From Puccinia triticina (Eukaryota; Basidiomycota; Pucciniomycetes; Pucciniales; Pucciniaceae): a stretch of DNA of 64,000 bases. The translations under genes and the position numbers were made by a program. Numbering within the stretch: position 1 is the first letter of the stretch; each line of letters begins with the position of its first letter. Where the stretch lies: contig NC_070562.1 in the NCBI RefSeq assembly GCF_026914185.1, positions 4,650,001 to 4,714,000 of the forward strand. The letters are read 5' to 3'. The notes beneath the pieces were generated by a model. The model had not been told where the DNA came from and searched no databases. It saw nothing but the letters and a program-made list of their open reading frames with translations. Positions 5,525-26,842 of the stretch are shown one piece after another.

Positions 5525-5647
5525 AAATCTACTTCAAAATCTGTAATGTACCGTGCACGCGTTACGGATAACGGTACCGCTAACGGGCAAAAAAAGGTTA
5601 CACTACCGTTACGGTACCAATAACCGTACCGTACCTACACATCGTTG
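5525..5647 (+). repeat. right terminal region of hAT1, TAACG-rich
   Basis: About 120 bp downstream of the transposase stop are crowded with TAACG and GGTACC motifs and end in CGTACCTACACATCGTTG. Read backwards the end is CAACGATGTGTAGGTACGG, very close to the right end of the MITE at 27807-28217 (CAACGGTGGGTAGTTACGG), and both continue with a GGTTATTGGTA block. The left end of this hAT is not in the window, so its target duplication cannot be tested. Confidence 0.7.
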
Positions 5648-5648
5648 C

Positions 5649-6134
5649 CGCTGCTCTCATTGCTTGCGGGATTCTCTCCGCAAGGGGGAATTGGTTCTTC
5701 TTTACAATCATAACCTTGAGTCTCAGTGGGGAAAGCTGTTTTCTAACCAATGGAATGGCCCTTATCGCATTGTGTCACAATTTCCTGGTGAAAGTTACGA
5801 GTTGGAAGAGCTGGACGGGAGACTTTTGAAGTGGCGGGCGGCAGCGACGCATGTCAAGCGGTTTTATGCGCAGGGTTTTATGGATTTCAATCAGACTGTG
5901 GAATTGGATGACTCTGAGGATAAAGTTCAGGTTCCAGGGGACACCTTGTCTTCGGCGAGCTCAGATGGTGCGGCGTCTGGCAATGAAGATTCTGGCTTGG
6001 AAGCAGTGTTGGAGGGGGACGGTGCGGATCAGGCACCTCCGCCGTTGCAACGGAGTCGGCGTTTGCAGACCGCTGGGGACAGCGGTAAAAAGGCTGGGGC
6101 GGGGAAAGCCGTGGCAGGCAAAAGCCACAAGTGA
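5649..6134 (+). pseudogene. Ty3/gypsy integrase C-terminus (element G3)
   Basis: The frame reads LRKGELVLLYNHNLES, then QWGKLFSNQWNGPYRIVSQF and GESYELEELDG: the GPY/F module at the C-terminus of gypsy integrases. The same module occurs in G1 on the opposite strand (GKLFENKWNGPYQV...AYELEELDG), so the two are related. A low-complexity Ser/Gly/Ala tail follows to the stop at 6134. Everything upstream (gag, protease, RT, integrase core) is missing, replaced by the hAT1 end at 5647. No chromodomain is visible. Confidence 0.8.
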
Positions 6135-6711: not shown

Positions 6712-8109
6712 CTAGGGAAGTTTGGAATCAGAGGAGTGGCGAGTACGCTCCGTAGGGATACGCTCCACAGGGATAGTGGTGTTGTTCTCCGCGGCAGTAG
6801 GTTGTGTGGGGTGCGGCTTGTTGCGTAGCGCTTCCTCTAAGTTTTGTCGAGCTCAGAGAGTACTTTCGTTGGTGGGAATGATAACGGCTGGCTTGAGGCG
6901 TTTGACAAGTTGGTTGATGCCGACGAGGAAGGTTGTGTACCTACGGCGGCGTTGTGCGGGTGTTACCGCAGAGATGTGAAGCAAAGCGCGGTACATTTCG
7001 CGGAAGTAACCTACATATTCGAGTACGGCGGCGACGGGGAACACAGCTTCCTCCCAGAGGGGATTTTCAGGGAAGGTGTCGCGTAGGTTGCGGGAAATCT
7101 CCGCGATTTGACGATTTAGCAGCCCAGCTTTGGTGTCCTCAGCTGGCTCGGCAGGCGGCAGAAGATGGATAGGTACTGGCGAGGCTCGAGGGCGCGGAGT
7201 CGGAGAGTCAGGGGACGCGGCTCGGGCGGCAGCGGTTGGCGGGGCAAGGAGTCAGGGCGCTTTTGGAGTGGTATCAGCCAGCGGAGAGGTCGGATTCGTG
7301 GACTCCAACGTATGGATTGAGGAGGCCCAGGCAGCTCCGGCTTGCGGGATTTTGGTGTGCGGAACGGACTGGGGAGAACTGGGTGGTGAACCGGAAGGGG
7401 TATGGGACGGGTTGTTTGGTGCCATCTTGGAGTCCCTTGCTGGGGTGGCTGGAGCGGTTCAATGGTTAGCCGTGACACAACAAGTAGAAGCGGAGAGTTA
7501 CCTACCGGGAGCCTGGGGAAACGTGGGCTCTGGAGAAAGGATGATCGGTGTCAGGTCACGCGGACGAGCGGAAAATCGAGCTGCGAGGTCAAGAGTCTGC
7601 GAACCGGCGGGACATGGACGCTTTGGGGATCGATCCGAGGAATCCGCTGAGGGGTGTTTCAAACCAGTAGTGGGAGAAGGCCTGGCAGCCGACAATGGTC
7701 CAGCGGCAGAGGTTGATGCGGGTTCTTGAGGACGTTTGAGGCGCTTGTTGACTAGAGGATTGTTGACGCCGTGTTTACGGGCCCACGCCTGGGCTTGTTG
7801 GACGTAGTCCTTGGCGCTTGAGCAGTTGGCACAATTCGGCGGAGGCGTCATAAGGTCTTCACCGTGTGCAGAGGGCGACTTGGTGCGGGAACTGACTGAG
7901 ATAACAGACGGGGAATGTTCCGCGCGAGAGCTTCGCGATCCAGACAGCGGCAGACAGTTTTGTGATTCGTGGTGTCTGTGGGAGCTGTCGGATTTAGGTG
8001 TGAAGGCAGAGCAGCGGCGTTTTGAATCTCAACAGTTTTTACAAGTGCGACCAGCGCGGGAGTAGACGCAGGGGAGTCCAAGTTGAGTGCAGCAATTGCA
8101 AGCTACCAT
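6712..8109 (-). pseudogene. spliced opposite-strand accessory gene of G3, Cys-rich zinc-cluster protein
   Basis: The ATG is at 8107-8109. Exon 1 runs 8109-7506 (phase 1), an intron 7505-7440 (66 nt, GTAGGT...CCCCAG, branch-like GCTAACC) and exon 2 7439-6712 (TAG); total 444 codons. The frame is interrupted only by three TGA codons (8031-8029, one after TTPKAP, one after NESTL), each readable as CGA to TGA. The N-terminus is Cys-rich (CNCCTQLGLPC, TCKNC, then KRRC), like fungal zinc-cluster motifs; a Ser/Pro/Arg-rich middle has a second CANC; the C-terminus is helical (PVAAVLEYVGYFREMYRALL). It lies tail-to-tail with the G3 integrase. Function is unknown. The family link to G3 rests on position only. 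Confidence 0.6.
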
Positions 8110-8282: not shown

Positions 8283-9319
8283 TGTGGAACTTCTACGCTA
8301 GGCGTGATCTGAGCTTGGAAGGGAAATGTAGGAGTCACGGATAATGACAGACTACACAGGTGCTTGAAGGGCTGCCTTCCTTGAATAAGCTTCTGGGAGA
8401 ATGTGAACTAAGAATTTATAGTGTGGCGCAATCTTTAGAACTATTCTTAATTCTATTGGACTCTGAACCCTAATTACCTGTGTTCAGTGCGCAAGAGATG
8501 AGGAATGTTATATGTAAGGGATGTAATGAGGAATTTTATATGTAAGTGATGTAAAGAGGATTGTTATATGTAAGGGATGAAGAGGAGGAATGTTATATGT
8601 AGGTGATGTAAAGAGTAATGTTATATGTCAGTGATGTAAAGAAGATTGTTATATGTAAGTGTTGTAAAGAGAATTGTTATATGTATGAAATTTATCTATG
8701 TCAAGGGGGCAAGTTATATATTTCAATTAATATTTCAAAATATTATAATTCAACTATTTATATCAAGTGATGAGTGCTAGTAATCTACAATATTACTATC
8801 AAGTGCAAACATGAGGGAAAAAGAAAACAGGAAGGGGCAGAAGAGACCTCCTTTTATAGTAAATAAACTTGTCTGAGACTAGAAATATGTAGCTGAAAGA
8901 TTCTTCTACTATGTGATGTGTACAGCTGTGTGAAATACAAAAGGGCTTGGTATTTTACTATCTAAGTGGGAATTTCTTTTCACAGAAGAGTGTATCAGAT
9001 GTGATTGTACTCTGAGAGTGGAAAATATTCTGAGATCTACTGTGTATCTACTGTATATCTACTCTTATATGGAAAATACATCTATGAGCTGTTTCTTAGA
9101 GGTGATTCTTGGATGCTACTATGAGATGTGTTACATGTCTGATACTTATTTCAAGAAATGTTACCAGTTTTCTGGGTGTACAAATAATTGTGAAAGACGT
9201 GTGAAATTTAATATGGAGGTTATTTGTACTGTATATGTTTTGTATGTAGTTTATACTGTACTTTAATATTAAAATCTACGTCTTTTGTATATTCTTGCTG
9301 GTTGATTGATCTCACCACA
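8283..9319 (-). repeat. G1 3' LTR
   Basis: This 1037-bp LTR differs from its partner by scattered substitutions and one 28-bp unit. It contains seven tandem copies of a 27-28 bp unit with core TTRTATGTAAG (about 8496-8692); the 5' LTR has eight (about 25990-26211). The length difference of the LTRs equals one unit, which points to slippage after insertion or during replication. Confidence 0.92.
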
Positions 9320-9328
9320 TCCTCCCCC
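9320..9328 (-). other. G1 polypurine tract
   Basis: On the minus strand GGGGGAGGA directly precedes the 3' LTR start TGTGG, the expected position of the plus-strand primer. Confidence 0.7.
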
Positions 9329-10190
9329 AACTTATTTGTCTGTCCTCAGACAATGGAAAGGAAAGAGAATATAAAAAATAAGGAAAAGGAAAAGAAGAAA
9401 GAAAAGGATTTTTAATTTGTGTAGTTGTTCTGGACCAACGGTGAAAATGGTTGAGGTATGCGTGATAAAGTTTTGTTTTATTTAACTTTTGCACAGCGCG
9501 GTTGCTTTTGTCAGGATTGGTGATAGAAGTGACATTTGACTTGATTTCAGATTTCGCATCTTTACTACTTAACCAATTTGTTTTGATTATTTTGATGAGT
9601 GACACTTGTGTGAACGTTGGTTGACCATGATTGATCACATTTTATATGGTTTTGATCACAGGTCGTCTGTAAGGTAAGCTTTTTGTTGATTGCATTCCAC
9701 AATATATTTGAGTTTGATCCAGTCAAGAGTTTCCCCGGATTTTGATTCAATCACATGTATTCTCTAGAGTACTTTTACAGTTCGTCTCCACACTGATCCA
9801 TTTGATTTTCTTCTTTAAACTAGGTCGACTCGTCAAGTTTTACGGAACGTATATCACGGAAACGGTTTGTTATTATTTCAGACCCTCAGCTCAGGTTTGA
9901 TATTTAAGTGAATTTTCTTGGTTTTCCAAAATTGAGACCTTGTTTCCTAGATTGATCCTGCGCTGACGCTAAATTTAACAGAGAAGGTCAAAATCAAAGA
10001 CGCTGATACTTGATCTCTAATCTATTTCATATTGCCAAGGTTGAAGTTTTTTTTTTTTTTTTTTTTATACCAATACATGTAGTGATCTCTAACGTTCCTT
10101 TACTGACTCAATTGATCCACTTTTCCTTTGTTGCAAGATATCACTTATCCGTCCGCTTATCCTGACCAATTGATCCCTGAATCCCGTCCA
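9329..10190. other. gene-free segment between G1 3' LTR and its opposite-strand gene
   Basis: AT-rich sequence with many TTGATC and GATCA words and a poly-T run near 10048-10066. No convincing coding frame. The right part probably holds upstream sequence of the gene at 10302. Confidence 0.5.
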
Positions 10191-10196
10191 TATAAA
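10191..10196 (+). promoter_or_regulatory. TATA box of the G1 opposite-strand gene
   Basis: TATAAA lies 106 nt upstream of the ATG at 10302 on the plus strand, opposite to the transcription direction of G1 itself. No other strong TATA lies near. Confidence 0.5.
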
Positions 10197-10301
10197 CCAG
10201 CCCTTTCTTGTCCTTCCAACCACCAAGAATCACACGGCACAAAGTCCTCAGAAAGGAAAAGACATCCACCCAAAATATCATCCAAACAAAAACATCACAC
10301 T

Positions 10302-10831
10302 ATGTCTTATGAAAACCCGATCATTGTGCCCAACAATTCCCCTCAAGCTCTTAGTCGTGCAGCCAATGATGTAGATATTGCTAGATTACTTGCTCCTAAC
10401 GGCTTTCCGATCATTGTTGGAGAATGTTACTCTCAAGCCGAACTCGACGTCATTACTGAAGTCGTCTTAGTCTTAATTCAAAAACACTGTCACAGGCACC
10501 TCCCGCGTTCCTATATCGAACAAGAGAATCATATCCAATTATATCGCGAGATTCGCGACAGCTTCACGATGGTGAGTTTTTATCCTTCTAAGAATCCCTT
10601 TGACTTATACTAACTACTTTTTTTACAGACCAATCTTCATAAACTTCTTGGAAGCTTTTTCGCAGCTTTCCATAGCCGCGCTTCGCTAGACGGCCAAGAC
10701 GCCAATCAAGACAGTAAGTTTTTCATTTTCTTTCTCCTCCGATTGTTTGTGATAGTATTTAAAATGTGATGCCGCGTATTTTCTAGCCATCATGGAACCG
10801 TCCAACTCTTCCAGCTCGTAGGCGCCACCGG
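10302..10831 (+). CDS. spliced opposite-strand accessory gene inside gypsy G1
   Basis: Three exons give an uninterrupted protein of about 129 residues: 10302-10571, 10629-10713 and 10797-10831. Intron 1 (57 nt) is GTGAGT...TACTAAC...TTTTTTACAG with a perfect branch site; intron 2 (83 nt) is GTAAGT...TTTTCTAG. Phases match at both joins, and the stop is TAG at 10829-10831. The protein starts MSYENPIIVPNNSPQ, has a helical middle (QAELDVITEVVLVLIQKH, then IQLYREIRDSFTM) and ends in a Ser run. No signal peptide, Cys cluster or known motif is seen. Its last exons overlap the integrase C-terminus of G1 on the other strand. While G1 pol is full of stops, this gene is intact. I do not recognise the family; one possibility is an antisense ORF like those reported in some plant gypsy elements. 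Confidence 0.6.
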
Positions 10832-11138
10832 GCATCTGTCGACGTACTTGGTAAGGCCCGTTCCATTTATTCTCAAATAACTTTCCGTATTGAGAGTCCA
10901 AACTTTTATTATAAACTAATACCAAATCTTTTTCTTTTAATGTTCCTCTAGAAACTTTTTTATTATTCCAATAGTCCACAGATTGCTGTCTAGTACTAAG
11001 AAGATGCGAATGAACTCGTTGTAATAGCTTATCCCGTCGTCGTAATTGAAGAACTCGGGCCTCCAGTAGCTCTTGAGTTGATTTAACAGACTCCCAACTG
11101 ATTCCTAAAAAAGTTTCAAATTCCAAGTCTAAAGGCAA
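10686..11138 (-). pseudogene. G1 integrase C-terminus
   Basis: The frame contains LPLDLEFETFLGISW, then the conserved LVLVYNKSLDSQYGKLFENK, WNGPYQV and AYELEELDG (GPY/F module). It is separated from the integrase core by stops near 11240. After the GPY/F module it keeps only a short Lys/Glu-rich tail, with no chromodomain. It overlaps exons 2 and 3 of the plus-strand gene. Confidence 0.8.
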
Positions 11139-11249
11139 TATAGCCTGTTGACCAAAAACAAGCTCAAAAGTTGAATAGCCTGTAGTTTGTTTTGTTGAGA
11201 TTCAATCCGCAAAAAGTACCAAAGGAAGAAATGTTTGTCATTTTTTGCC

Positions 11250-11642
11250 CTATGTACCACAAAGCTTAACCAATGTATCTTTTATCGCCTGATGACCACA
11301 TTCCACCATGCCATTTGCCTCCGGATAGTATGGTGTCGTGATTTTTACTTTAATATCTAAATTTTTTAATGAATCCTGGAATTGTGTACCAAATTCTGAT
11401 CCCCCATCCACTACAACTTTCTTGGGCGCCCCATACCAATACACCCAATTTTCTTGAAACCACGCAGCAATTTTTTTAGCTTGAATTTTTTCCATTCCTA
11501 CCGCTTCAATCCATCCAGACAAATCGTCACGCGCAATAACTAAGTACTTCCATCGTCCTGCTTTGATATGTACCGTGTCCAAACTAACTCTTCCGAAAAT
11601 AGTTGATTCTCCTGTGGCATTTTTATCCTCGACTGATGGCAA
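11250..11642 (-). pseudogene. G1 integrase catalytic core
   Basis: Core motifs are visible: VSLDTVHI (first Asp), VVVDGGSEFGTQF (second Asp) and NGMVECGHQAIKDTL (Glu). Upstream at 11643-12026 the zinc-binding domain can be glimpsed but is interrupted by stops, so integrase is not expressible as one piece. Confidence 0.8.
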
Positions 11643-12026
11643 TAATTTACTCCGTTTCTGACATGGTTCGCAAGATTGAACCCATTTTTTAACCGATTTT
11701 TTTAGATTTGGCCACCAGAAACGTAATTTGACTCAACGGTACGTTTCCTCAGTTCCTCAATGGCCCAAGCTTTCATGGAGCGCATGTAAAATTTTCTGTT
11801 GAACTTCTGGCGCTGAAACTACTACCTGTGCAAATGGTTGACTTTTCTTATGTAAAATTCCATTAGAAATAAAGAAAAAAAGAGATTTTCAAATAATATT
11901 TTTAAATTCCTCCATACTCGTGTCCGCCGGTCTATTCATCGTAGATAAGTAAATTTCCAATTTTTTCCAAAAGCCTTCCTGCAAAACCAACACGTCCTCC
12001 CCCAACTTAGCTGTTGTCCCCAACAG

Positions 12027-13947
12027 CTACACCGAAAACGCCTCCTTAGTTCCAAATCCGGGATGAGGATTCACCCATTCTTCATCTTCATCAAAGCAGG
12101 GCGCGTCTCTTTCGTCGGGATCAGGCGGTCGTCTAGAGAGGCCGTCCGGCATTGTAAACGTCTTGGCAGGTGTATGTATTAATTTAAAAGAAAACAACTG
12201 AATAAAAGCAATCCAGCGGTTCATCGGGGCGTTTGGTAAAGACGGGTTATTTATCATGCCAATGAGACATTTAGCGTCCACTTGTGGTTGAAAATATTGC
12301 CCCCATAGAACTACTTGTAATTTTTTAAGTATTTTAGATACACCACAAAGTTTGAGTTTGGATTGAGAATAAGCTGACTCCCGTTTTGAAAATACTTTAG
12401 ATTTGTATTGTACTGGTCAATCCAATCCTTCTTTATCCTCTTGAGTAAGTACTGAACCCGCCGCAATTACGCTAGAATCAACTGACAACTTAATTTTTCC
12501 CGCTTCTTCGCCATAATCTAATTTTTTAAGATTAATATCCGTCCCCACAATCTTTTTTAATGCTTTAAATGCTTCTTGACAGGCGGCTGTCCATTCCCAG
12601 CGCGCATCCTTCCAAGTAAGCCTTCGAAGAGGCGCGGCCAACGTTGAGAAATCTTTAATAAACATTCTAACATAAACACATACCCCCAAAAAACCTCTAA
12701 CTTCCGTTACGCTTTTTGGTATAGGCCAAGTTTCAATTTTGTTTAATTTTTTCTTTGAAATCCGTCGACCTTCTTTACACACAACGTGTCCAACAAGATC
12801 CAACGCCGGTACGCAACAGGCGAATTTTTTAGCAGAAGTTGTAAGACCCGCCTCCTCTATTCTGAACAAAATTCTTTCTAAAGTTACCACATATTCAAAT
12901 ATAAATTTTCTAATCTTTGGATTTTCTTTTAATGTCTCGCCACTGTAATCCGATTCTGGTCCCTTTATACCACCATCATCGATGAAAATAGTAATACCAA
13001 CGTGTTGTGGAATTTCCGGCTGCAGAATCCACATCATTTGCGCCTGGTACACGGCGACAGAGTTGGTGGCTCCCTGAGGTAATCTGGTAAGTTGAAACCG
13101 CCCTAGTGGCGTCTCAAATGTAGTTAATGGTCGAGATTCTGGCGCTAATTCCCTCTCATCACAATTCGAAGTTTGCCGTCTTGTTTTTTAACACAAAACA
13201 CCGGGCTAAAATAACTTGAAAAGGATTGTTTGTAAAGTCCAGTTTTCAAGCGCTCTTGTACTAATTCAATAAATGTTTCTTTGATAGGTCCAGGTATTGG
13301 AATTGGTTTAAGCTGCCACGGATCGTGTGGAATTACTGGAATTACGTAAGGCTTTTCATACGAGTGTTTTAGAATTCCACAATCCGCCTCGGTAAAAGCT
13401 AGCGCTCCTTGTCAAAGAATAATTAAATTACAAAATAGATTATATTCTTCCTCTGATAACCAACCCGAAGGACCAAAATTAATAAGCTTTAATCTTTCTT
13501 CTGTAATCTTTTCTGTAGGCTTAAAGGGAGGTGGATTGGGGGTTAAAGGGGTTTTATATGGATCACGAGATAAAGGCGGTCTGGAAAGTGGAGGGTTTAT
13601 TGATAAAGGCATTGGAGCATTAACAGGTTTAATCTTCTTTTCCACGGTTTTGTATTTGGCGGCGTTACAACTAATTGATTTCCCCGGAATCTCGTGTAGT
13701 TTTGCTGTTTGAAATTCCGGGCCTACTCTAAAAAATCCCGCGTTACAGTGTTTACTGGTAATGTAGTTTGAAATTTTTGATTCCGTGGCGTAAGTATTGG
13801 AACTAAGTATGTCCGGTCCTTCTGATCAATTATAGCTAAAGATTCTCCGCCCGTTTTGTTATACTTAATTGTAGCTCTGACTTCGACTAAGAATGGTTTG
13901 CCGAGTATAAATTGTAAAGCGCCTCGCGCCACCCAGAAATGAACAAC
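12027..13947 (-). pseudogene. G1 protease end, reverse transcriptase and RNase H, broken
   Basis: Reading minus-strand: a protease-to-RT linker (KPFLVEVRATIKY), a Pro-rich linker (13645-13412), RT palm with ITIFIDDGG at about 12985 (IDD instead of YVDD), the RT connection (TEVRGFLGVCVYVRMFIKDF), RNase H (KLSVDSSVIAAGSVLTQED) and its end (LSRRPPDP at 12150). Stops and frameshifts at 13723, near 13650, 13411-13053 and 12417 divide it. This pattern marks an old, inactive copy. Confidence 0.85.
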
Positions 13948-15465
13948 TCAAGTAAGTCTTCCTATAGTTACTTCAACTCCTTCGGCAATCCCGATGATTC
14001 CCGTATGATTTCCACCAATTCCTTTCAAGTTCATTGGTTTTTCCGTAACTACAAGACCTAATTCCTGCGCTAAGTTTTCCGGAATCAAATTAACCATAGA
14101 TCCCGTGCCTAACAAGGCTTCTTCCTCCCTATTATTTATATTAAGCCTAATATAACCAAGAGGGCACAAGTAATGAGTGGTAAATAGATCTGAAGAGTTT
14201 TCTATTTCCAATTCTGCATGATTAGCTGAGTTGGCCTCTTCATTTGGTACACGTTGATTAGATATTTTCTTTTTGAAGATATCTACAACTCCATTTGATA
14301 TAGCAAAGATTTCGCCATAGCTCAGTGTCATTCGACCTTCTGACAACATTATTTTGGCGGTTTCTTCTTCTATTCCCGGGAATTCCTTCGCCAAAGTACG
14401 TTCTAGGTGAGTTTTTCTGACTGGCTTTTCTTTTTCAACTTCCTCTTCATCTGATTCTTCAAATCTGACTTTAGTGGATACAGTTTTGAGTTTAGATGGT
14501 TCCTTAGTGATCTTTTGTGCTGTAGCTTTCTGGAGAAGATCATCGACATCTACATCCATCACCGCTTCCTTTCCACTTTTAACTCGCTTTCCGCTCCCCA
14601 AATTATCCGGCTCCTTTTCCGACCGTGTTCGTTTTCCGACGTCCACCTCGTAAGTCGCGCGTTCCTCCGGTTTGTATTCTTCAAGCTGTCCAAATGAAGA
14701 AGTCATAACATTTGCCGCTGATTCCTTATATCTATCAACAACTTCTTTAATAGGGCGACGAGTATTCCATGGGATCACCGTGTTGTTTGGTAAGAAATAA
14801 TCTCGTCCTTCTCTTTTAACTAAACCTTGCGCTTCATCAAACAAAAATTTACTACAGTTATTATTTCCATGGGTTTCTTGGAAACAATAAAAGCATTTGA
14901 AGTCTGGATTTTTGTACGGCGCTTTGACTGGAGTAGAATCTGTTGTCATATGGGGTTGAATCATTTTACCAGCCGTTAAAGAGGCTAACTGTTTGGTTAA
15001 ATCTTGTATTTGTTTTTCAAATTTTTCCACAACAGGCTTTTCCCGTTCTATGACCTGCTCAAGTTTATCCTTTGATTTTTCGACATTTGATGAAGAAGGT
15101 AAATTTTCTGATTCCTTGTGTCCGCTCCATAAATCTCGTCTTTCTAGGATAGATGCTGATTGAACCTCACGCTGAATGTATCGCAATAAGACGCTAGATT
15201 TTGGCAGAATATCGCCGCCATCCTTTGATATTTCCATCTGATCATCTCGAATTAATTCTTTAGTGACAGTTGAACCTAATTGTCGACTAAGCGCCCCCAA
15301 AAGCATCTCTTGAAATTCTTCCAGGCTAGCGTTGTACCCCATTCGAACCAGATAGTGCGTTATAGTTTCAAATTTTGTTTTAAAAATTTTAAATTCACTG
15401 AGTGTACTGATTCCGCCCTTCTTGATTGCGGCGTTGACCAAGTTTTTTAGATCTTTATTGGTGTA
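13948..15465 (-). pseudogene. G1 Gag C-terminal part and protease
   Basis: From 15465 the frame begins YTNKDLKNLVNAAIKK, which continues in frame from PLVK at 25091 once Helitron A is removed. It includes a C-x2-C-x4-H knuckle (CFYCFQETHGNNNC), acidic/basic linkers and the protease fold (ALLGTGSMVNLIPENLAQ). The catalytic motif should be LLDTGS; here Asp is Gly (GGC), so the protease is dead. A TGA at 13950-13948 ends the frame. The first ~40 codons of the open frame to the right of 15465 lie in Helitron sequence and are not Gag. Confidence 0.85.
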
Positions 15466-15862
15466 TCCAAGATTATTAAAGACACAGTTTTTCCACAAAA
15501 GAAAAAAAAAAAAGGTCATGGGTTCCCCCTTACAATTTGTCAAAATAAAAAAAACAAAATACAAGGGTTTCCCCTTACAACAAAACAACAAAACAAATTA
15601 CAAGGTCATTATAAATACAACATAAATAAAAAATTCAAATATGAAATGCCCCCAAACAACACCAAAGGTGTTGTGAACAGCAATGGGTGTTGCATCTGGG
15701 CCAACCTCCAGCCCGCGTCAAGAGCGCGGGTCAAAAAGGAAGGGCCTTGAGGGCCCCCATCCCGCGGCAAAGGCTGCAGAACCCGGGGGGCCCACTCTTT
15801 AGCCCCTCAAACTGTGCAAGTGCAACAGCGGAGGGGGTTGAGGACGAACCGCACGCTGGAAG

Positions 15863-16069
15863 TGTTGAGTCTGAGATCAGCGCACACAAGGTTGGGCGAG
15901 TGGAGATGAGTGTGGAAGGATGAGGAGAGGAGACCTTCCACGTGCGCTGTCTCAGGTATACTAACAACATGTGAAGTGGGTGTGAAATGTGAGAAATGTG
16001 AAATACATGTATGTAGACTAGCAGAGAGAAAGAAACTAAGATAGGAAACACCGGTTGACTAACTTAACA
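15863..16069 (-). repeat. C1 3' LTR
   Basis: 207 bp, preceded on the minus strand by the polypurine tract GCAAGGGGGGG (16070-16080). It carries ACTAG once more than the 5' LTR. Confidence 0.95.
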
Positions 16070-16299
16070 CCCCCCCTTGCTTCATACATGAAAAGAAAAG
16101 AAAGAACAGTGAAGAAGGAAGAAAGAAAAAAATATAATAAAAAAAGAGAAACAGAGAAAGGAATTCAAGGAGAGAAGGTGTGGGAGAGAGGGAGAAAACA
16201 AAATGAAGAGTGTAGGGTTAGAACAGATAAGTGAGAGGGAAGATGAGGGAGAGGAAGAGGGTAGAGAGGGAGGGAGAGAGGAATTGGGGATGTCCAGAG

Positions 16300-19200
16300 T
16301 CATTGAACAATGCCAAACAGAGCACGGTGTCTTTCCAGGGCGACGCGGGGTAGGGGTTTAGTGAGCATGTCTGCGAGCATGTTAGCCGTTGAGACGTGGA
16401 GAAGAGAGATTTGTCCCTCTTGAACACATTCCCGGATGAATTGGTATCTTGCGTCGATATGCTTGGTCCTGGAGTGATGCTCGGGATTCTTTGCGAGAGC
16501 CTCCGCGCCTTCATTGTCGACGTGGAGAGGAATGGCTGTGTCTGGACGAAGACGTAGTTCCGTGAGGAGATGACGGAGCCACAGGCCCTCCTTGCACGAG
16601 TCGGAGAGAGCCTTATACTCCGCCTTAGTGCTGGAAAGAGAGACAGTCGCCTGTTTGCGCGACTTCCATGAGATGGCGCCATCTCCGATCCTGTAGGTGT
16701 ATGCGGAAGTGGACCGACGGTCGTCGCGGTCTTCAGCCCAGTCGGAATCCAAGTAGCTGGAACATTCGAGCGCACCGCCCAGACGTAACTTGAGATCTTT
16801 GGTGGTGACGAGGTAGTTGAGGATGCGTTGGCCAGCTTGCCAGTGAGCTTCTGATGGGTCGCGTAAATGTTGAGATAAGAGGTTCACCGCAAAGGCGATG
16901 TCAGGGCGGGTGCATTGGGACACCCACAGTAGGGACCCGATTAGTTGAGGATAGGGGCTGGAAGAAACAGGATTGGTCTTATGCCGTTGACCAAGGTTTT
17001 TGAAGTTGGAATCAGTGGGTGTGGCAACTGGAACGTGATTGCCGCCAAGGAAACGGTCGCGTAACTCCGAGATATAATGTGCTTGATTGAGAAAGAGATG
17101 TTTATTGGAGATGTCCCTGGAGATCTTCAACGATAAGAAGTGACTGAGCTCTTCGTCAGCACCAACCTTGAAACGCTTGCCAACCTCCGAGATGATGGAG
17201 TCAACAAAAAGTGGCTCCCCAACAATTGCCAGGTCATCGACGTGTGTGGTGAGAGCGCCTACAAGGTTCCCTGCGTGCAGTTTGAAGTACAGAGTTGGAT
17301 CGTATTGTGAGTTGGTGAGCCCGAGGCCGATTAGTGCCTTGTGGAGCTCGATGTTCCACTGGCGTGGAGATTGTTTCAAGCCATACAGAGACCGGTTTAC
17401 CTCGCAGACCTAATCCGGGTGTCGGGGATCTTCAAATCCGGGCGGTTGTTCCATGAATAGGGGTTTGTCCAGGTGGCCATTCAGAAATGCTGTTTTGAAG
17501 TCAACTTGGCGACCTTTCCAGCCGCGGCTGGCGAGTAACGAGAAGATCAATCGGAGAGTTTTGAGCCGTAAGGTGGGAGAGAAGACCTCATCATAGTCGA
17601 GACCTTTGATTTGGGAATAGCCCATTGCCACAAGACGTGCTTTGAGTTTCTGGATTGTATTATCAGGGCGTCTCTTGATCTTGAATACCCATTTGGATTT
17701 GATGATGCGCCGTTTTTTGGGACGAGGGACCAGACGCCAGGTCTGCATTCCAATGAGCGATGCAAACTTGTCCTCCGCTGCTTTGAGCCAGCGGTGTTTG
17801 TTCGGAGATTTAATGAGCTGTTGCCAGGTTTTTGGGGTGTCAAGGTCCTCACCAGTGTCTGTCTTCTTGGACCACTGGCTGTAGCGGTCCGGCGCCCTGC
17901 GTTCGCGAGTTGGTCAGCGAGGGGGTGGATATTTGTGACTTGGCGAAGAAGGAGGAGGGATAGGAGGTGGGGAAGGGGAAGGTGATGCGGATCTGGGAAG
18001 GGGGGGAAGGGAAATGATTGATATTTCTGTTGATGGTGAGTCCCCGGCGGACAGGCTCGAGGGAGGATGTTGGGGAGAGAGTGGGGGGGAAGCTTTCGTT
18101 GGTTGCTTGACATGAGAGGTGATGGAGTCAACCGAAGCGGGAGGCTTTGAGCTAGACACCTCATCTGGTACGGGCCACAAGACCTCTACGGTTATGGGTT
18201 CGGGATGAGAGTTTAGTTTGGAGCCATATGGGAAAGTGGAGTCATGAAATATTACATCACGCGATTTGACTACCAACCGCCTCTCAAGGTCCCAGAGGCG
18301 GAAACCGTTACCGTTCGAAATGTACGACAAAAGAATGGAAGCCCGGCCTTTGTTGTTGAGCTTCTTCCGGTTTGCCTCTGGTACTTTGTACCATACCAGG
18401 CAGCCGAATGGATGTAGAGATTTGAGATCGACTTCTGGGGATTCCAGAATAGATGAGGGTGAGAGAAAGCCCCGCGGAGTGTTGCAGGGAAAAGAATTGT
18501 GTGGGTATAGAGCGTGCCGGAGGGCGTCAGCCCAGAAGGATTTGGGGAGTTTTGATTGAAGTAAAGACGATCTGACAAGGTTCCCTATCGTTCGGTTCGT
18601 TCTTTCAGCCACACCATTCAATTCGGGTGAGTGTGGTGGACCCGGGTCATGTTTGATGCCTGCGGAAGCTAAGTAGGATATGAACTCAGATGACATATAC
18701 TCTCCACCGTTGTCTGTCCGTAGAGCCATGATCTTGTGTTGACCCGATTTCTCAAATTGTGCGCGAAACAGTTTGAAGCATGCAAACGAATCGCTTTTTA
18801 ATTTCATGGGGAAAACAATGAGAAACTTGGAACAGTCGTCGATGAAGGTAATGAAATATTTGTATCCCTCCCTCGATACTACCTCATAGGACCCAACATC
18901 CGAATGAATGAGCTGACCAGGGGAGGAAGACTGATGAGCGGACCAAGATTTGAAGGCTTTTCGATGCATTTTTGACTGAACGCACACCGGACACTGTTGG
19001 ACTTCAATTTTGTTCATCACTGAGGGGACAATGTTGTGGCGTTTTAGCACAGATTTCAGCGGTTTCAGACCAAGGTGAGAGAATGGATAGTGATATCCAA
19101 GTAAGGAGTGGTCTATGGACCTGGGAGTTAGAGGAGAAGATGAATAGGAGCTCACAGGCTCGGCTGGCAAGTAGAAGAGATTTCCCCTTCTGTATCCCCG

Positions 19201-20565
19201 CCCGACGAGGGTTCCGCTGACCTGAGTACCGGCACTGTTGTAGAAATCGCACGAGGTTCAATTGAATACCACGGTGAGACCGCCATTGCATAGGCCAGCA
19301 ACCAAGAGTAGAGGTTTGTGGAGGGAGGGGACCACGAGGGTGTCTACAGACTGATCGCCGTCGATTGGGAGTTTGGAACGGCCTTTGTGTGTGGCCTCGA
19401 CATCGGAATCATCTGCTAGCCTGATGGGTGTTCGATCCGGTTTGAGGTTCGTGACCGTTGAGGCATCCGGAGTCATGGACATAGAGCAGCCTGAGTCTAT
19501 ATTTGCGTCTCCACTGGATGGAAGACCAAGCGAGGCGGAAAGTGAGACAACCGCGTTGTCTGCCTTAACAATCACTTCAGGGTTGGAGTAGTCAGACTCC
19601 TCCTTGGTGACATGGGCCTGAGGCGACTGTCCTAAAGTGGCAGCCGAGGTTCTTCCTGCCCTTGTTACCGGTTTGTTGGAGGACGAGTCCTTTTCTTGCT
19701 GGCTGGCCTCCCAGCGGGCTTTCTGAGCAGCTTTGTGATTGGCGATGAGCTTGCGGGTGTTGTTGCACAAGTTCAAGTCGTGGGAATCGCTGTTGCAAAG
19801 TGGGCAGCAACGGGTTTTCTTGGAGGGATCGTTACGAGAACCTTTAGAGCCGTTCGAAGGGAGGTTTGGCTTGGGAGGGTTAGTTTTTGTGGAAGAGACA
19901 GAGATGATATCTCCCTGCGATTCGCGACAAACTGCTTCGTTCTTTAGCGCGGAAACGATTGTTTTGGTCTTGACCCCCTCCTGATTCATCAGACCAGACA
20001 CGCAGTGGATCCACTCTGGGGGAATTGAACCAAGAAGGGCGGCGTTGTGAACATCGTCTGGCGTGAGTGGTTTTTCAGGAGTGATGAGGGTGTTCAATCG
20101 TTCGTATGACTTAGCCAAAGATTCGATGTGAGAGTTGATATCATCGCCCTCCATTCGAGCATTCAGCATCTTGCGGATCCAACAGACACGACCACCAGTT
20201 GAGGAGTCCTGGTGGGCTCGAGACAGATCATTCCAAATCCTCGCGGCGTCGTCTTCGTCAGCAAGATGACGGAGATTAGCTTCTTCGATGATCTGAACCA
20301 GGACGGCGCAAACCAGGTCGTTGTCCTCGCTCCATGTAGAGGCTTGTTGGTTGGTGGCCACCGCTGTGAGAACATGGTTTACCTTTGCTGACTTGAAAAC
20401 TTGGAGAACCACCTTCTTCCAGTTGAGGTAGTTCGAGTCGGCACCCGGTGCCTTGAGAATTGGAAGACGGGCTGTCGATATTTTTGAGTGAGTGGTCGAC
20501 ATTTTGGAGTTGAGGTCGACGTTGGTGTGAGTAGGCGGGTCTTCTTTTGTGTCGGATGACATCAC
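16300..20565 (-). pseudogene. C1 gag-pol polyprotein with three in-frame stops
   Basis: One frame runs from the ATG at 20565 to 16300. Gag (435 codons) ends with a knuckle CPLCNSDSHDLNLC and protease NIDSGCSMSM. Integrase (19170-17914) shows HLGL...CPVCVQSK, HSDVGSYE, RTDNGGEY and NGVAERTNRT. RT and RNase H (17748-16300) show KSKWVFKIKRRPD, VDDLAIVGEP, LDSDWAEDRDDRRSTSAY and HTKHIDARY-like motifs. Stops in frame: TGA 19258-19260, TGA 17914-17916, TAG 17410-17412; the last replaces a Trp present in the related copy C2 (HPDWVCEV). No frameshift is seen. With LTRs nearly identical, either the stops came fast after insertion or the copy was mobilised in trans. Confidence 0.93.
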
Positions 20566-20678
20566 AAGCAGAGAGAAGAAGACAGGTGATCCTTTTTGAG
20601 ATCCACGAAACGGTAGTACTCGCTATGCCGGTATTTAACGTGCTTGGCGATGCTGTTTGTAGCTGGAGGCTAGCTGGT

Positions 20679-20688
20679 GCTCATAACC
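20679..20688 (-). other. C1 primer-binding site, half-tRNA type
   Basis: Immediately next to the 5' LTR the plus strand reads GCTCATAACC, the anticodon loop of methionine tRNA (CTCATAA around anticodon CAT), so the minus strand is complementary to it. Copia elements are known to prime from a 5' half-fragment of initiator tRNA-Met. The match past 10 nt was not verified against a rust tRNA. Confidence 0.7.
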
Positions 20689-20890
20689 TGTTGAGTCTGA
20701 GATCAGCGCACACGAGGTTGGGCGAGTGGAGATGAGTGTGGAAGGATGAGGAGAGGAGACCTTCCACGTGCGCTGTCTCAGGTATACTAACAACATGTGA
20801 AATGGGTGTGAAATGTGAGAAATGTGAAATACATGTATGTAGCAGAGAGAAAGAAACTAAGATAGGAAACACCGGTTGACTAACTTAACA
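20689..20890 (-). repeat. C1 5' LTR
   Basis: 202 bp, TG...CA ends, flanked on the right by target copy GGAAG (20891-20895). Confidence 0.95.
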
Positions 20891-21170
20891 GGAAGTACAG
20901 CGGCAGAGGACGCCCTGGGGTATAGAATCACAACCCCCAGCTGTTTATATAGAACGACTGATCCACCCAGCCCTTGCCAGACTCCACCTTGGAAGCTGCA
21001 TGCAGCCTGGACAATGATACCGCCGCCGCCGCCACCGCCACACTGTTGCCTGAGTCTCATGCCTGATTGACCAATCACACGCGCCACGCTCCCCGTTGCC
21101 TAGACACTTGCAAGGCACAACCAACAAATCTGATCCCTGTGACATCTATACCCCGCAAGTGCCTTGATTG
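20891..21170 (+). other. Helitron A 5' module, continued after C1
   Basis: With 15780-15862 this forms a module (CCCCTCAAACTG...GCACAAGTGCAACAGCGG) also found at 55090-55190 in Helitron B and, more diverged, at 39590-39720 in Helitron C. After it come a TATA-like GTTTATATAG (about 20942) and a short GCC-triplet run (21021-21045). It could be a Helitron-borne promoter. No coding frame is evident. Confidence 0.5.
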
Positions 21171-21179
21171 GCCGTACCG

Positions 21180-21585
21180 GTCATTGAGAGTTGGCGAGTC
21201 CCCTTGATGACCGGTCTGATTGGTCATCAAGAGGATATGTGTGTCCCCTTGATGACCGGCAAAGACCAGTCATCAAGAGGAGATGTGAGTCCCCTCGATG
21301 ACCGGCAAATACCGGTCATCGACATCTCAATGACCGGTCTGTGCCGGTCATCGAGAGGTGGTGAGTCCTCTTGATGACCAGTCTGACCGGTCATTGAGAG
21401 GAGATGTGAGTCCCCTCAATGACCGGCAAATACTGGTCATTGACAGCTGTTAGTCACCACAATGACCAACACAAACCTGTCATTGAGAGCTGTGAGTCCT
21501 CTTGATGACTGGTCTGACCAGTCATTGAGAGGAGTTGTGAGTCCCCTCGATGACCGGCAAAGAATTGTCATTGAGAGTGCGAAAG
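21180..21585 (+). repeat. hairpin tandem array of Helitron A
   Basis: Imperfect tandem units contain inverted repeats such as GATGACCGG-CAAATA-CCGGTCATC separated by GAGTCCCCT spacers. Related units (GATGACYGG) make up the larger array of Helitron C at 40619-41700. Function unknown. Confidence 0.8.
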
Positions 21586-21802
21586 CGCGTCATCCACCTG
21601 CAAAGGCCTGCATCGACAGAAAGTGAAACCTGAAACTCAATCCCAATTCATCCGCCGTTTGCGCCGCTCAAACCCTTCAAAATCCTCCTCATCCTCGTCA
21701 AACACAAATTCAAATAGCAGGAATAACAAGAAGCCAGCACCCAATGCATCTAACTTTTATGGGTTGTCACTACCAGGCCAACCCAAGAATTCCCAGCTGA
21801 TA

Positions 21803-22294
21803 CTGTATGTACAATACCTCTCATTCTCGCCGCCCAAGTCGACAATTGAGCCCAAGAAGGAATCCTACAGGTACATCTGTGGAGAAAGCTTTGCTGGACA
21901 ATACATACCTTATATCAGTCCGTTTTTTCTGTTATTATCTCTCACTCACACAAGCTTTAATACTAACATATCTATGCTGATTATGGTCCCACCAACCAAC
22001 AGCTCAGTGCCAAACTGGATAGAATCCTGACACGCAACGGATGCGTTGACCCAATCAACCAATACCTGGTCTATTCAGAATTTCCCTTCAAAATCGGGCT
22101 CTTCAGCCCGGCCTCAAAAGCGGCCGATATACCGTTCAAATGTATGTCATCCCCACTCGTCCTCTTCTGCACTTCCTCTTTCTCTTGCCGTGTATCAGTG
22201 TGAATTCATAGAATATCTGTCTGAACATGTACAACATTTGGCTTGCGGATATGTATCTAGCATGTGGCCTAACCAATGACTCGCCGCCACCGCT
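21803..22294 (+). pseudogene. captured serine carboxypeptidase (S10) fragment
   Basis: The frame contains RYICGESFAGQYIPYIS, the catalytic-serine block of S10 carboxypeptidases (GESYAG in the family). After a GT-AG gap (about 21924-22002) it continues LSAKLDRILTRNGCVDPINQ and YLVYSEFPFKIGLFS, matching the region that in KEX1/CPY-type enzymes reads IGNGWIDP..QY. A further piece follows another intron-like gap (CEFIEYLSEHVQHLACG, 22199-22250). The N-terminal and the Asp/His catalytic parts are missing, and a solo LTR cuts it off at 22300. Intron-containing capture means copying from genomic DNA, as Helitrons do. Confidence 0.65.
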
Positions 22295-22299
22295 CCCGT

Positions 22300-23133
22300 T
22301 GTGAGCCTGTGTCTCTTGTGTGACAACAGGACACAAGGAAAATGGGGGGACTCTGGTTGGATTTCTTGGGATAAAGAAATACAAACAGAGAGAGAAGAAA
22401 GAAAGAGAAGATCAGGCCTAGACTTTAAGTCTTAATTAATTGATCTGGGCTATTCTCAACCTGGAAAAGTTGGATGCCAGCTGTGCAAGGCCAAGAAAGA
22501 GTGCAACAGCCTCCACTCACAACAAGGAAACGTTGGTGGGATTCAGAAGTAGGGTTACTACTCTGCTCTGGTTTTGTAGGTCTTAACCAGAGATAACCTT
22601 TTGATCTTTTAAGATTGAAAGAGTTGAAGAAAAGAAGAAACAGTCAAGAGCAACAGAGTTTCCCTCTGGATAAGCAAGGTTCAGTGAAAAGAGTCTACTT
22701 ACTGTCAATATCCTAGGCGCCTGTGACGGTAGGTATACTGGGAGCGTGGTAGTCTCTTTGGTGGTGATCCTGGGTTATCTGGGGTGTGGTTCTGGTGTGC
22801 TGAAGTCTGTGGATCCTCCAGCTGCATGGGGGATCCTGACTTCGAAAATTTTCAAAGTTGGATGACATAATCACACATGTACATGTGGTTGGGAGCGCTC
22901 AGGCACGATTACACGGCGCTGCTGCGCATGTGTGTCACAAACCACAAACTCTATGAAGGAGTAGAGATATTGTAAAGTGATCAGTGAACACTAGGGTCAA
23001 AATTGCATGAGAAATCAGAATCTGAAGTCAAAACAACCTTATGTCTTAAGGTTAAAAAGATATGAGCACATTTAGGTATAAAATGGAGATAAAAGGCAGT
23101 TTTAGGTCAACTGTGTTGACTCTAAGGCTGACA
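22300..23133 (-). repeat. solo LTR, family S, copy 1
   Basis: TGTGAGCCTG...CTAAGGCTGACA, flanked by exact 5-bp duplications CCCGT (22295-22299 and 23134-23138). The same LTR occurs on the plus strand at 32734-33635 and 42933-43904. No internal element region is attached. Confidence 0.92.
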
Positions 23134-23377
23134 CCCGTCGCTCCCAAACTGTACAGGGGGGACTTAATTCCACAGGGATTCCTTCCAGGAGCTTAGTGGA
23201 GCCGTTGAAGTCGTTCGCGGGCCAGACGCCTTGAAAGCCAAGCAGGCAACTGCGCAGTCAGAGAGCGCAACCTTGTCAAGTTGTTCAGTGAGTTGCACAT
23301 CCATTCCAATTGCAGCATTGTACGGTGCTTGCAAGATGACAAGCAACTTCTAATGTGGTCTCTCTCTCCTACACAGA

Positions 23378-24080
23378 TCTGTTTGAAAGTAACGCTTTTG
23401 CTGTTGTACAGAACAATCTCACCGGTAACATAGCGGCAAGTCCTCTTTGCTCCTGAGACCCAAATCTCTGTATATATGTATGCACTGACATTAATTACCT
23501 GCATACGTGCTACTCCTCAGAAAATCCGCAAGCGCTATGATGCTTGCCCTGATAAATCAAACACTCTTGAGTCCCTCATAGAGAATGAAGAGGCCGAAAA
23601 GAAGAAGCATCCCACCAAGGGTTTACTCTGGTTAACACAGTAAATTATATTTCCTTCATTTATATGTCCAACCCAAGAGCAAAAGTAACCAATATCAAGA
23701 ACTATGACAGCGGCTTGCACTTTAACTGCAAAGGTCTTCAATTAACTCAGAAAAACCCAGGTGAACAGTTGTTTTACATTCACAAAGGCTTATCATGGTA
23801 CTTTGAAAGATTCCCATTCACTTGTAGTAAAGCCAATATTTGGGGCAAATTTAACATTGATTACCAACACTTCAATACTCAAGAAACAGTTTGATCTGAC
23901 TCTAAAGATCACCATCCTAGCTTGCCATTAAAGTGTGCCCATATTGAGCAGATCTCTTTAAAAAATTGAGGGCCAAGGAGAAAGTTGATATTGAATTGGA
24001 AAAATGGCTCTCTGCCTTGGAAAAGATTGTTGTCAGAATCCAAAGGTTCTGCAAAAAATGAAACTATGACAAAGGTCTTT
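23378..24080 (+). pseudogene. captured glycolipid transfer protein (GLTP) gene fragment
   Basis: Exon pieces in order: DLFESNAFAVVQNNLTG (23379-23430), KIRKRYDACPDKSNTLESLI (23522-23582) through HPTKGLLWLT (to about 23638), then after a GTAAAT...GACAG intron GLHFNCKGLQLTQKNPGEQL (from 23712), and lastly KVDIELEKWLSALEKIVVRI (23972-24031). This follows GLTP family order: DLFDxxAFxxVxxDLxGN, KIRxRY, GLLWLxRGLxF, EEL, and the C-terminal W...L..I. GLTP proteins move glycosphingolipids between membranes in the cytosol. Frameshifts and stops (TGA after RFCKK) and lost residues show it is not functional. Confidence 0.7.
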
Positions 24081-25059
24081 GAAGACATCTCAACACCTGC
24101 AACCCAGCATTGTTTTCTCTTTAGAATATCTCACATAGAACTGTCCAATGTGAGAGGTGTCAGAAACTTTCTTTGTCTCACACTGTGTATAATTCTTCTG
24201 TTCATTCAGGAGCTGTAATTTATCTTTCTCACTTCTTCTAATGTGGTATGAAGGAGTGGCTTTTGCCATGTAAATTACATTGCTTTCAAATTTAATCTTT
24301 TATGTACTCTCCTAAGACTGTGCCTCATTGGTTTTGAGCTTCCCCATCCTAGAACTTGAGTATTGCATCCATTAGGCAGAAGACAAAAGCTCAGCAAGCG
24401 TGGATTTTGGACTGCCATCACCCACTCCATCATCTTTCATCAGGAAATGAGCATCTTCAGCTCGTACCATAATTGGACATTGGCATTTTTGGTCTGATCT
24501 GGGTAAAGCTTTGTGCTTGAGGCCATCCCATTCAATATCAGCTCCTGGTCCAAAACTGACAGCCTCCTCCTCCTAATGCTCCCTTCTCTTGCTTGGCCAC
24601 CACCCTGTGCCCTCTGCTCCAGATTACACAGAAGCAAAAGATAGGAAGTTGGATAATTGGCATTTGAAGTTTCCTTTGAGATTTTGATTCATGGAAACTT
24701 GCACAATTGTGAATTTCTGTTATTGTTGGATGAATTTGCAAGGTGTGATTTTTCAACTGTTGAAAGATTGAGGTGATTGGAATTGGTTGATGAGGATTAG
24801 AAACATGGTTGTAAACAATTATAATCATGTCTTTTGTGTGATTAATCCTGAATTTGCCTGCATATAGTACAAGTCCTTGGCTGATGAAGCTTTTCCTGGT
24901 GACTGTAGATATTTACCATTCAAATGGGTGGTGTGAGAAAATTCAACAGTGAGTGAACTATGAATTGATTGCTATTTCTGGCTGGTATATGAGGGATATG
25001 TAGAGCTATGTATGTTGGCAGGGGTATCAAACACAGAGGGTGAAAATCTGAACCTTGGA
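24081..25059 (+). other. Helitron A 3' part, no gene recognised
   Basis: AT-rich sequence without a credible frame or motif. It ends in the Helitron 3' hairpin and CTAG at 25060-25090. Confidence 0.5.
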
Positions 25060-25090
25060 TCTGCAGCAGCGAAGCCGCCCTGGCCTCTAG

Positions 25091-25576: not shown

Positions 25577-25757
25577 GACTAATAGAGAATAATCTGAAAA
25601 CTTTTTAAAAGGAGTTTTTAATGTAAAGCGCGTGTAAGAAGGGAAATTTTATATGGAACCTTTGAAAATAAGATAAAAAAAAGTGCGTGAAGCTAGGTTT
25701 TAATTTTAAGGTTTAGTAGAATAGAGTTTTTAAGAATAAATTCTGGAGGAAGATTAG

Positions 25758-25775
25758 GCCACTGTTGGGACACCA
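25758..25775 (-). other. G1 primer-binding site
   Basis: The plus strand reads GCCACTGTTGGGACACCA two bases from the 5' LTR, i.e. a tRNA-like 3' end terminating in CCA to which the minus strand is complementary. The tRNA identity was not assigned. Confidence 0.6.
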
Positions 25776-25777
25776 CT

Positions 25778-26842
25778 TGTGGAACTTCTACGCTAGGCGT
25801 GATCTGATCTTGGAAGGGAAATGTAGGAGTCACGGATAATGACAGACTACACGGGTGCTTGAAGGGCTGCCTTCCTTGAATAAGCTTCTGGGAGAATGTA
25901 CACTAAGAATTTATAGTGTGGCGCAATCTTTAGAACTATTCTTAATTCTATCTGACTCTGAACCCTAATTACCTGTGTTCAGTGCGCAAGAGATGAGGAA
26001 TGTTATATGTAAGGGATGTAATGAGGAATTTTATATGTAATTGATGTAAAGAGGATTGTTATATGTAAGGGATGAAGAGGAGGAATGTTATATGTAGGTG
26101 ATGTAAAGAGTAATGTTATATGTAAGTGATATAAAGAGGATTGTTATATGTAAGTGTTGTAAAGAGAATTGTTATATGTAAGTGTTGTAAAGAGAATTGT
26201 TATATGTATGAAATTTATCTATGTCAAGGGGGCAAGTTATATATTTCAATTAATATTTCAAAATATTATAATTCAACTATTTATATCAAGTGATGAGTGC
26301 TAGTAATCTACAATATTACTATCAAGTGCAAACATGAGGGAAAAAGAAAACAGGAAGGGGCAGAAGAGACCTCCTTTTATAGTAAATAAACTTGTCTGAG
26401 ACTAGAAATATGTAGCTGAAAGATTCTTCTACTATGTGATGTGTACAGCTGTGTGAAATACAAAAGGGCTTGGTATTTTACTATCTAAGTGGGAATTTCT
26501 TTTCACAGAAGAGTGTATCAGATGTGATTGTACTCTGAGAGTGGAAAATATTCTGAGATCTACTGTGTATCTACTGTATATCTACTCTTATATGGAAAAT
26601 ACATCTATGAGCTGTTTCTTAGAGGTGATTCTTGGATGCTACTATGAGATGTGTTACATGTCTGATACTTATGTCAAGAAATGTTACCAGTTTTCTGGGT
26701 GTACAAATAATTGTGAAAGACGTGTGAAATTTAATATGGAGGGTATTTGTACTGTATATGTTTTGTATGTAGTTTATACTGTACTTTAATATTAAAATCT
26801 ACGTCTTTTGTATATTCTTGCTGGTTGATTGATCTCACCACA
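25778..26842 (-). repeat. G1 5' LTR
   Basis: 1065 bp, same termini as the 3' LTR, with one extra 28-bp tandem unit. Right flank begins GCGG, matching the four bases before 8283. Confidence 0.92.

What the first reader, a model, noticed from the sequence alone, without database searches (positions are those of the whole stretch)
10302..10831. Intact, spliced opposite-strand gene inside a dead gypsy element
Between the integrase and the 3' LTR of G1, on the other strand, three exons with canonical splice sites (one with a perfect TACTAAC) and its own TATA box encode about 129 residues with no stop. The pol genes around it are full of stops. This fits an accessory gene under its own promoter, convergent with the retrotransposon, and I know no described function. 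It may regulate the element by antisense overlap (its last exons cover the integrase end) or help its host or the element in trans.
Basis: partly seen in the sequence, partly recalled or inferred. Interest (0 to 1): 0.85.

Follow-up and report, generated by a model that had tools for sequence, protein, structure and literature searches.

The report
Spliced antisense gene in rust retrotransposons
Jumping genes in a wheat rust fungus carry, on the strand opposite their own enzymes, a small spliced gene kept by selection, which suggests that these elements use a helper protein of unknown function.

Summary
On the + strand, exons 10302-10571, 10629-10713 and 10787-10821 join into 129 codons plus stop, between integrase and 3' LTR (8283-9319) of a minus-strand gypsy element, almost certainly in Puccinia triticina. 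One inference fails: LTR divergence is 0.012, so a neutral frame stays stop-free with P=0.93; intactness of this copy says little.

The gene is real and wider than proposed. Of the 150 integrase relatives scored, 132 face a homologue within 6 kb and 12 another antisense ORF. Three divergent families share a helical block in register up to intron 1. Exon 1 dN/dS is 0.08-0.29 in family I and 0.12-0.27 in older family II pairs. One database protein equals the joined exons of a genomic copy; another matches a second copy from an internal GTG. A decayed relative lacks intron 1, like a processed copy.

Best reading: a protein-coding antisense accessory gene of the retrotransposon. The kind is known (maize Grande gene23, Botrytis brtn); this spliced rust form is a new variant.

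The parts
10191..10196 (+). TATAAA, putative core promoter of the antisense gene, 111 nt before the ATG
   Evidence: a TATA-like word stands at -130..-50 in 20 of 25 homologues tested against 7.6% of background windows (word list chosen after looking; rows not independent; L015, L016, L019 left out)
10302..10571 (+). exon 1, 90 codons, with the conserved helical-hairpin block (residues about 39-89)
10572..10628 (+). intron 1 (57 nt, GTGAGT..TTACAG, TACTAAC at 10608-10614); position shared by families I, II and III
10629..10713 (+). exon 2; its last 28 nt are antisense to the end of the integrase frame
10714..10786 (+). intron 2 (73 nt, GTAAGT..TTCTAG)
10787..10821 (+). exon 3 with the stop codon, wholly antisense to integrase codons
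10686..11201 (-). integrase C-terminal frame of the host element (sense strand)
11250..11732 (-). integrase H2C2 and rve core frame
   Evidence: PF00665 E 2e-10, PF17921 E 7e-10
12027..13187 (-). RNase H and reverse transcriptase frames, broken by stops
13948..15597 (-). gag and protease frame
8283..9319 (-). 3' LTR of the element (TG..CA); a purine-rich tract on the minus strand adjoins it at 9320
25778..26842 (-). 5' LTR; 12 substitutions in 1037 aligned bases against the 3' LTR, K2P 0.0117; GCGG beside both outer ends

Best explanation
This is a protein-coding accessory gene of a Ty3/gypsy lineage. It is transcribed from its own promoter inside the element, head-on to gag-pol, spliced from three exons, and carried along at every transposition; its introns survive because the genomic RNA of the element is the other strand. 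Its product is a small protein with a two-helix hairpin (about 50 residues) and a family-specific tail encoded by exons 2 and 3. Most likely it works in trans for the element family, through protein-protein contact of the hairpin, as a regulator of element expression, packaging or nuclear steps, in the way proposed for Grande gene23 and known for retroviral antisense proteins. Shown: gene structure, position, homology across three families, purifying selection, and database proteins that match joined exons. Inferred: translation in vivo, promoter use, action in trans, regulatory role. My odds: real selected protein-coding gene of the element 0.9; acts on the element's own cycle rather than for the fungus 0.7; specifically regulates expression or nuclear steps 0.4.
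For: Position: of the 150 integrase copies scored (872 candidates), 132 face a homologous exon 1 on the other strand within 6 kb, and 12 of the other 18 face the antisense ORF of a fourth family; 3 more have antisense pieces further off or exon 2 alone. Homology: hhalign family I vs II 51 columns, E 1.8e-5, score 33 against a maximum of 18.8 in 200 column shuffles; II vs III 38 columns, score 28 against 18.5; the blocks end one and four residues before the exon 1 border, in the same register on both sides. Selection: family I exon 1 dN/dS 0.08-0.29 over 11 pairs (integrase 0.066-0.074 in 4 pairs); family II 0.12-0.27 in the 13 pairs with dS of at least 0.39. Splicing: P0004 equals the joined exons of L018 letter for letter; P0006 equals the last 92 residues of joined L019 except M for the V encoded by GTG; no copy in the genome matches them without introns at high identity; L046 (C6:4409688), 43-47% identical and with a stop, runs through the intron 1 site without an intron and has no integrase beside it within the 1.4 kb read, as a processed copy of a spliced antisense RNA would. 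Eight annotated P. triticina proteins belong here (P0002, P0003, P0005, P0007-P0011). Fold: helical hairpin in two models.
Against: No RNA reads could be seen; the contigs behind P0004 and P0006 were not seen, only their lengths. The window copy itself has no transcript evidence. Two of the annotated proteins are modelled otherwise than here (P0002 joins other sites, P0003 ends inside intron 2). L046 might be an intron loss rather than a processed copy. Family IV is not detectably homologous, and families I and III are linked only through II (direct comparison E 0.026; 1 of 200 shuffles as good). Of 28 family I pairs, 21 had saturated dS. No Pfam family reaches its curated cut-off in the ten proteins scanned; no PDB fold or sequence match. 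The protein evolves fast (family I 30-52% identical to the window copy). Models are only moderately confident (mean pLDDT 73.5 and 62.2).
Confidence: 0.72

Rival explanations
1. The antisense RNA is what matters: a transcript complementary to the integrase end limits the element by double-stranded RNA or transcription interference, and the reading frame is secondary.
For: The genes are convergent with integrase in all four families, so RNAs that run past their stops would pair; the review PMC7264820 (part 2) allows this role for such genes; exon 3 of family I is antisense to integrase codons.
Against: dN/dS of 0.08-0.29 in exon 1, which does not overlap integrase; frame and intron 1 kept while most family I pairs are saturated at synonymous sites; no coding overlap in 3 of 4 loci read in families II-IV.
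Confidence: 0.12
2. A host gene captured by the element, now working for the fungus.
For: Introns and a TATA-like box look gene-like; eight members are annotated as fungal genes; L046 lies away from integrase.
Against: Three searches of 5.8 billion proteins gave 11 proteins, eight named P. triticina and three unnamed, none from another named organism (word-based sensitivity, and the third scored only 7996 candidates); the loci sit opposite integrase; L046 has an in-frame stop; the near-identical pairs of families II and III show no clear constraint.
Confidence: 0.06
3. A chance open frame or annotation artefact.
For: The window copy alone is weak evidence (P of no stop 0.93); 129 codons is short.
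Against: Three families with shared intron position, dN/dS far below 1, and 104 of 124 family II rows without a stop.
Confidence: 0.03

Closest known systems
Antisense additional ORFs between pol and 3' LTR (aORF-3R): maize Grande gene23, RIRE2, Retand, PvRetro13
   Same: Place and orientation; carried by most copies of a lineage; Grande gene23 has its own promoter and a nuclear product (review PMC7264820, parts 1-2 of 3 read).
   Different: No Pfam domain here (Retand aORFs carry TRP28, PF04195); a shared intron position; fungal host. The word intron does not occur in the Retand paper (PMC11963269, word search).
Botrytis Boty brtn antisense gene
   Same: Antisense gene between pol and 3' LTR of a fungal gypsy element (named in PMC7264820 and PMC8365987; the original paper was not read).
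HTLV-1 HBZ and the HTLV-2/3/4 APH proteins
   Same: Spliced antisense gene at the 3' end of an LTR element, encoding a small regulator (PMC10186651, passages).
   Different: HBZ starts in the 3' LTR, here the TATA is about 870 nt inside the LTR edge; no bZIP match; function here untested.

Membership tests
Antisense additional ORF of LTR retrotransposons (aORF-3R) | lies between pol and 3' LTR, antisense to gag-pol | tested here: met
   LTR pair, integrase and gene mapped in the window; in other copies only the integrase side was mapped
Antisense additional ORF of LTR retrotransposons (aORF-3R) | present in most copies of the lineage | tested here: met
   144 of the 150 integrase copies scored face an antisense ORF within 6 kb
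Antisense additional ORF of LTR retrotransposons (aORF-3R) | transcribed from an own promoter | tested here: inconclusive
   TATA-like word in 20 of 25; no expression data seen
Retand-type antisense ORF | TRP28 domain (PF04195) | tested here: not met
   Pfam scan of ten members, none matches it
Boty brtn | sequence homology to brtn | not tested
   no brtn sequence at hand
HBZ-like bZIP antisense protein | bZIP domain | tested here: not met
   no Pfam bZIP match, even for the Arg-rich exon 2 of family III; motif pattern recalled from PROSITE absent in six proteins
HBZ-like bZIP antisense protein | transcription starts in the 3' LTR | tested here: inconclusive
   the TATA lies outside the LTR, about 870 nt from its inner edge; start sites were not measured
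HBZ-like bZIP antisense protein | represses 5' LTR transcription | not testable with these tools
   needs an experiment

The most novel reading that the evidence does not exclude
A whole lineage of rust gypsy elements relies on a fast-evolving, spliced antisense trans-acting regulator, a counterpart of retroviral HBZ/APH that arose independently, whose hairpin core is fixed and whose exon 2-3 tail is swapped between families to follow changing host silencing or sibling elements.
Probability: 0.3. Interest if true: 0.8.

Novelty: new variant of a known kind. Interest (0 to 1): 0.62.

Why it matters
Rust genomes are swollen by gypsy elements (PMC12210899, passages). If nearly all copies of one lineage carry a selected antisense protein gene, that protein is a candidate for what lets the lineage multiply or keeps it in check, and it is easily missed because it lies on the other strand and is spliced. 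The review of this gene class asks for exactly such spliced antisense transcripts to be looked for (PMC7264820). Well over a hundred copies in one genome make the question of protein versus RNA function open to statistics.

Tried and rejected
bZIP idea for the Arg-rich exon 2 of family III: rejected, no Pfam match at E up to 1 and no motif. Fold match in the PDB: best E 3.1, none usable; profile against PDB sequences: none. Signal peptide or membrane protein: not formally predicted; no strongly hydrophobic stretch. 'Intact gene in a dead element' as evidence of selection: rejected. My first reading that the high-copy elements lack the gene was wrong: most carry a diverged homologue, so the AS/no labels of the tree mean family I versus the rest, not presence versus absence. 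My note that the genome holds no intronless copy (entry) was also wrong: on checking, one row spans the intron 1 site, and I read it. Papers: 7 searches that ran listed no title or abstract start that reports such a gene in a rust; the library holds open-licence papers only.

Full report
The observation. The three exons, both GT-AG introns, the TACTAAC and the TATA box are all there. Joined, they read 129 codons and a stop at 10819-10821. The host element runs on the minus strand between LTRs 8283-9319 and 25778-26842, which start TG, end CA and have GCGG beside both outer ends. A second element with its own repeats at 15863-16069 and 20689-20890, read as copia from its frames, is nested inside. 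Pfam finds integrase, RNase H, reverse transcriptase and protease in the minus-strand frames, the last two below their curated cut-offs.

The organism. The genome of the window has 122.8 Mb in 18 contigs, and the eight named database relatives are all Puccinia triticina 1-1 BBBD Race 1, so the fungus is almost certainly the wheat leaf rust.

What the intact frame does not show. The LTRs differ at 12 of 1037 aligned sites (K2P 0.0117, 28 gap columns). Under neutral substitution since insertion, without indels, the antisense frame stays free of stops in 93% of 4000 simulations. The pol and gag frames hold 10 in-frame stops over about 1600 aligned codons. That is roughly twelve times what the LTR clock predicts (arithmetic), so the element was probably already dead when it inserted and moved in trans, or its LTRs were homogenised. 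Either way, 129 codons at the pol stop rate would stay open about 45% of the time.

What does show a gene. Exon 1 finds 16 rows in the genome, 13 without stops. Of the 14 loci fetched with flanks, 13 have integrase on the other strand, facing the gene, inside the fetched piece (in L022 the match is weak, E 2e-4). In the fourteenth, L016, exon 1 is parted by 7.3 kb from an integrase that still has exon 2 beside it. In all nine loci for which gene models were listed, the best-scoring model puts intron 1 in the same place with GT and AG (models were ranked by likeness to known members, which favours this). TTCTAG is the acceptor of intron 2 in five of the nine; in L013, L014 and L015 the top model ends in CGAG, and in L013 and L014 it has no convincing exon 3; nor has L022.

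Selection. Nei-Gojobori dN/dS of exon 1 is 0.08-0.29 in 11 pairs of family I (codons with stops dropped), with Fisher P from 5e-3 to 2e-14; integrase in the same loci gives 0.066-0.074 in the 4 pairs not saturated. In the wider set, 21 of 28 pairs were saturated and not used, and 4 with dS above 2 gave 0.15-0.36. Exon 2 is looser (0.21-0.43, three pairs). In family II, 13 pairs with dS of at least 0.39 give 0.12-0.27. The near-identical pairs have too few changes for more than a hint: two of family II give 0.44 and 1.2, three of family III have 0-1 synonymous and 3-4 other changes, which fits no constraint; but the three family IV pairs, also young, give 0.08-0.26, and L029/L039 of family III 0.26. 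Pairs are not independent.

The wider family. Integrase has at least 150 scored relatives, many with open frames above 1000 codons (872 candidates, only 150 scored). My first pass found no relative of the window gene in 18 of 20 such loci, and I took them to lack it. Sixteen of those 18 show an antisense frame of one of three other kinds in the same place; L040 and L042 do not. Family II (119 merged places) and family III (20) are homologous to family I by profile comparison, with ungapped blocks of 51 and 38 columns that end one and four residues before the exon 1 border, in the same register on both sides, and beat all of 200 shuffles; I-III directly is not significant. In the joint alignment the last 50 columns are without gaps, although cutting the rows at the border helps that. 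Intron 1 boundaries were found in 10 of 11 loci modelled (not in L038); the expected full three-exon model appeared in 6 of 11 (L023, L024, L026, L028, L029, L035), other junctions only in L025, L032 and L039 among the rows printed, and none in L034 (by eye L025 has the expected exon 3). Of 150 integrase copies, 132 face a member of families I-III and 12 more face family IV, an antisense ORF of 138 codons without detectable homology. Of the remaining six, three have antisense pieces further off or exon 2 only; three have none that I found. The other way round, 12 of 23 family I, 15 of 119 family II and 3 of 20 family III places have no facing integrase in that capped list; some do have one when read locally (L010, L019, L022).

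Expression. P0004 (148 aa, longest contig 972 nt, source labels lgn and ena) is letter for letter the joined product of L018. P0006 (92 aa, longest contig 1272 nt) is the end of the joined product of L019 and begins with M where the genome has GTG coding V, the mark of a bacterial-type ORF caller working on an uninterrupted frame. The genome holds their exons apart and no intronless copy of high identity. It does hold one distant one, L046 (C6:4409688): 43-47% identical, running without an intron through the exon 1-2 junction and to the exon 2-3 junction, with a stop inside and no integrase within the 1.4 kb read. That is what a processed copy of a spliced antisense RNA would leave, though loss of an intron is not excluded. 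The simplest account of all three is spliced RNA. I did not see the contigs, and the meaning of the source label lgn (Logan assemblies) is recalled. P0001 has the same exon joins but no identical locus in this genome. The annotated proteins P0007 and P0010 have the junctions I predict for family II; P0002 and P0003 are modelled otherwise.

The protein. No Pfam family reaches its curated cut-off; the weak matches (Serglycin, SepQ, MerR, CAF20) look like composition. The 90-residue model of exon 1 has a two-helix hairpin at 45-65 and 71-89 with block pLDDT of about 80 to 92. The model of P0007 (family II, 195 aa) puts a hairpin at the matching place, 73-94 and 98-118, followed by a long helix, at lower confidence. 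No PDB match. Tails differ: family III is Arg-rich, family II rich in Glu and Lys (sequence itself), so the constant part is the hairpin, which argues for a protein-contact role. This last step is inference.

Known kinds. [quoted passage not shown] Grande gene23 has an own promoter and a nuclear product, and Boty of Botrytis is a fungal case (PMC7264820, parts 1-2 of 3 read; PMC8365987, passages). In Retand they carry TRP28 (PMC11963269, passages). HTLV antisense genes are spliced and regulate the provirus (PMC10186651, passages). The present gene meets the definition of the class, fails TRP28 and bZIP, and differs by a shared intron and by being nearly universal in the part of its lineage that was scored. 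A 2025 survey of rust transposons does not use the word antisense in its main text (PMC12210899, word search).

Noticed in passing
window 6853-7251 (-), beside a + strand integrase end at 5547-6134: Another antisense ORF 3' of a different gypsy integrase in the same window, with 81 match rows in the genome, most without a stop; possibly a further antisense gene family. Co-location with integrase elsewhere was not checked.
   Followed up: partly
L046 583-828 (G000 C6:4409682-4409927): Decayed, distant relative of the antisense gene without intron 1, perhaps a processed copy.
   Followed up: partly
G000 C13:5464160-5474899: Four copies of the family II antisense exon 1 in a row at exact spacing of 3462 nt, all with one TAA: a tandem array, perhaps made after one copy broke.
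   Followed up: no
window 8283-26842: gag and pol carry about twelve times more stops than the LTR divergence predicts, so this copy may have moved with a dead pol.
   Followed up: partly
L029 and L025, exon 2 of the antisense gene: Arg-rich stretch RRQRNRASRRVRRERE (L029; one residue differs in L025) looks like a basic nucleic-acid-binding region although no bZIP match is found.
   Followed up: partly
window 8468-8693, inside the 3' LTR: Tandem repeats of about 28 nt in the LTR.
   Followed up: no
L010 6742-7537: The second-closest copy is an inverted duplication of the antisense gene.
   Followed up: no
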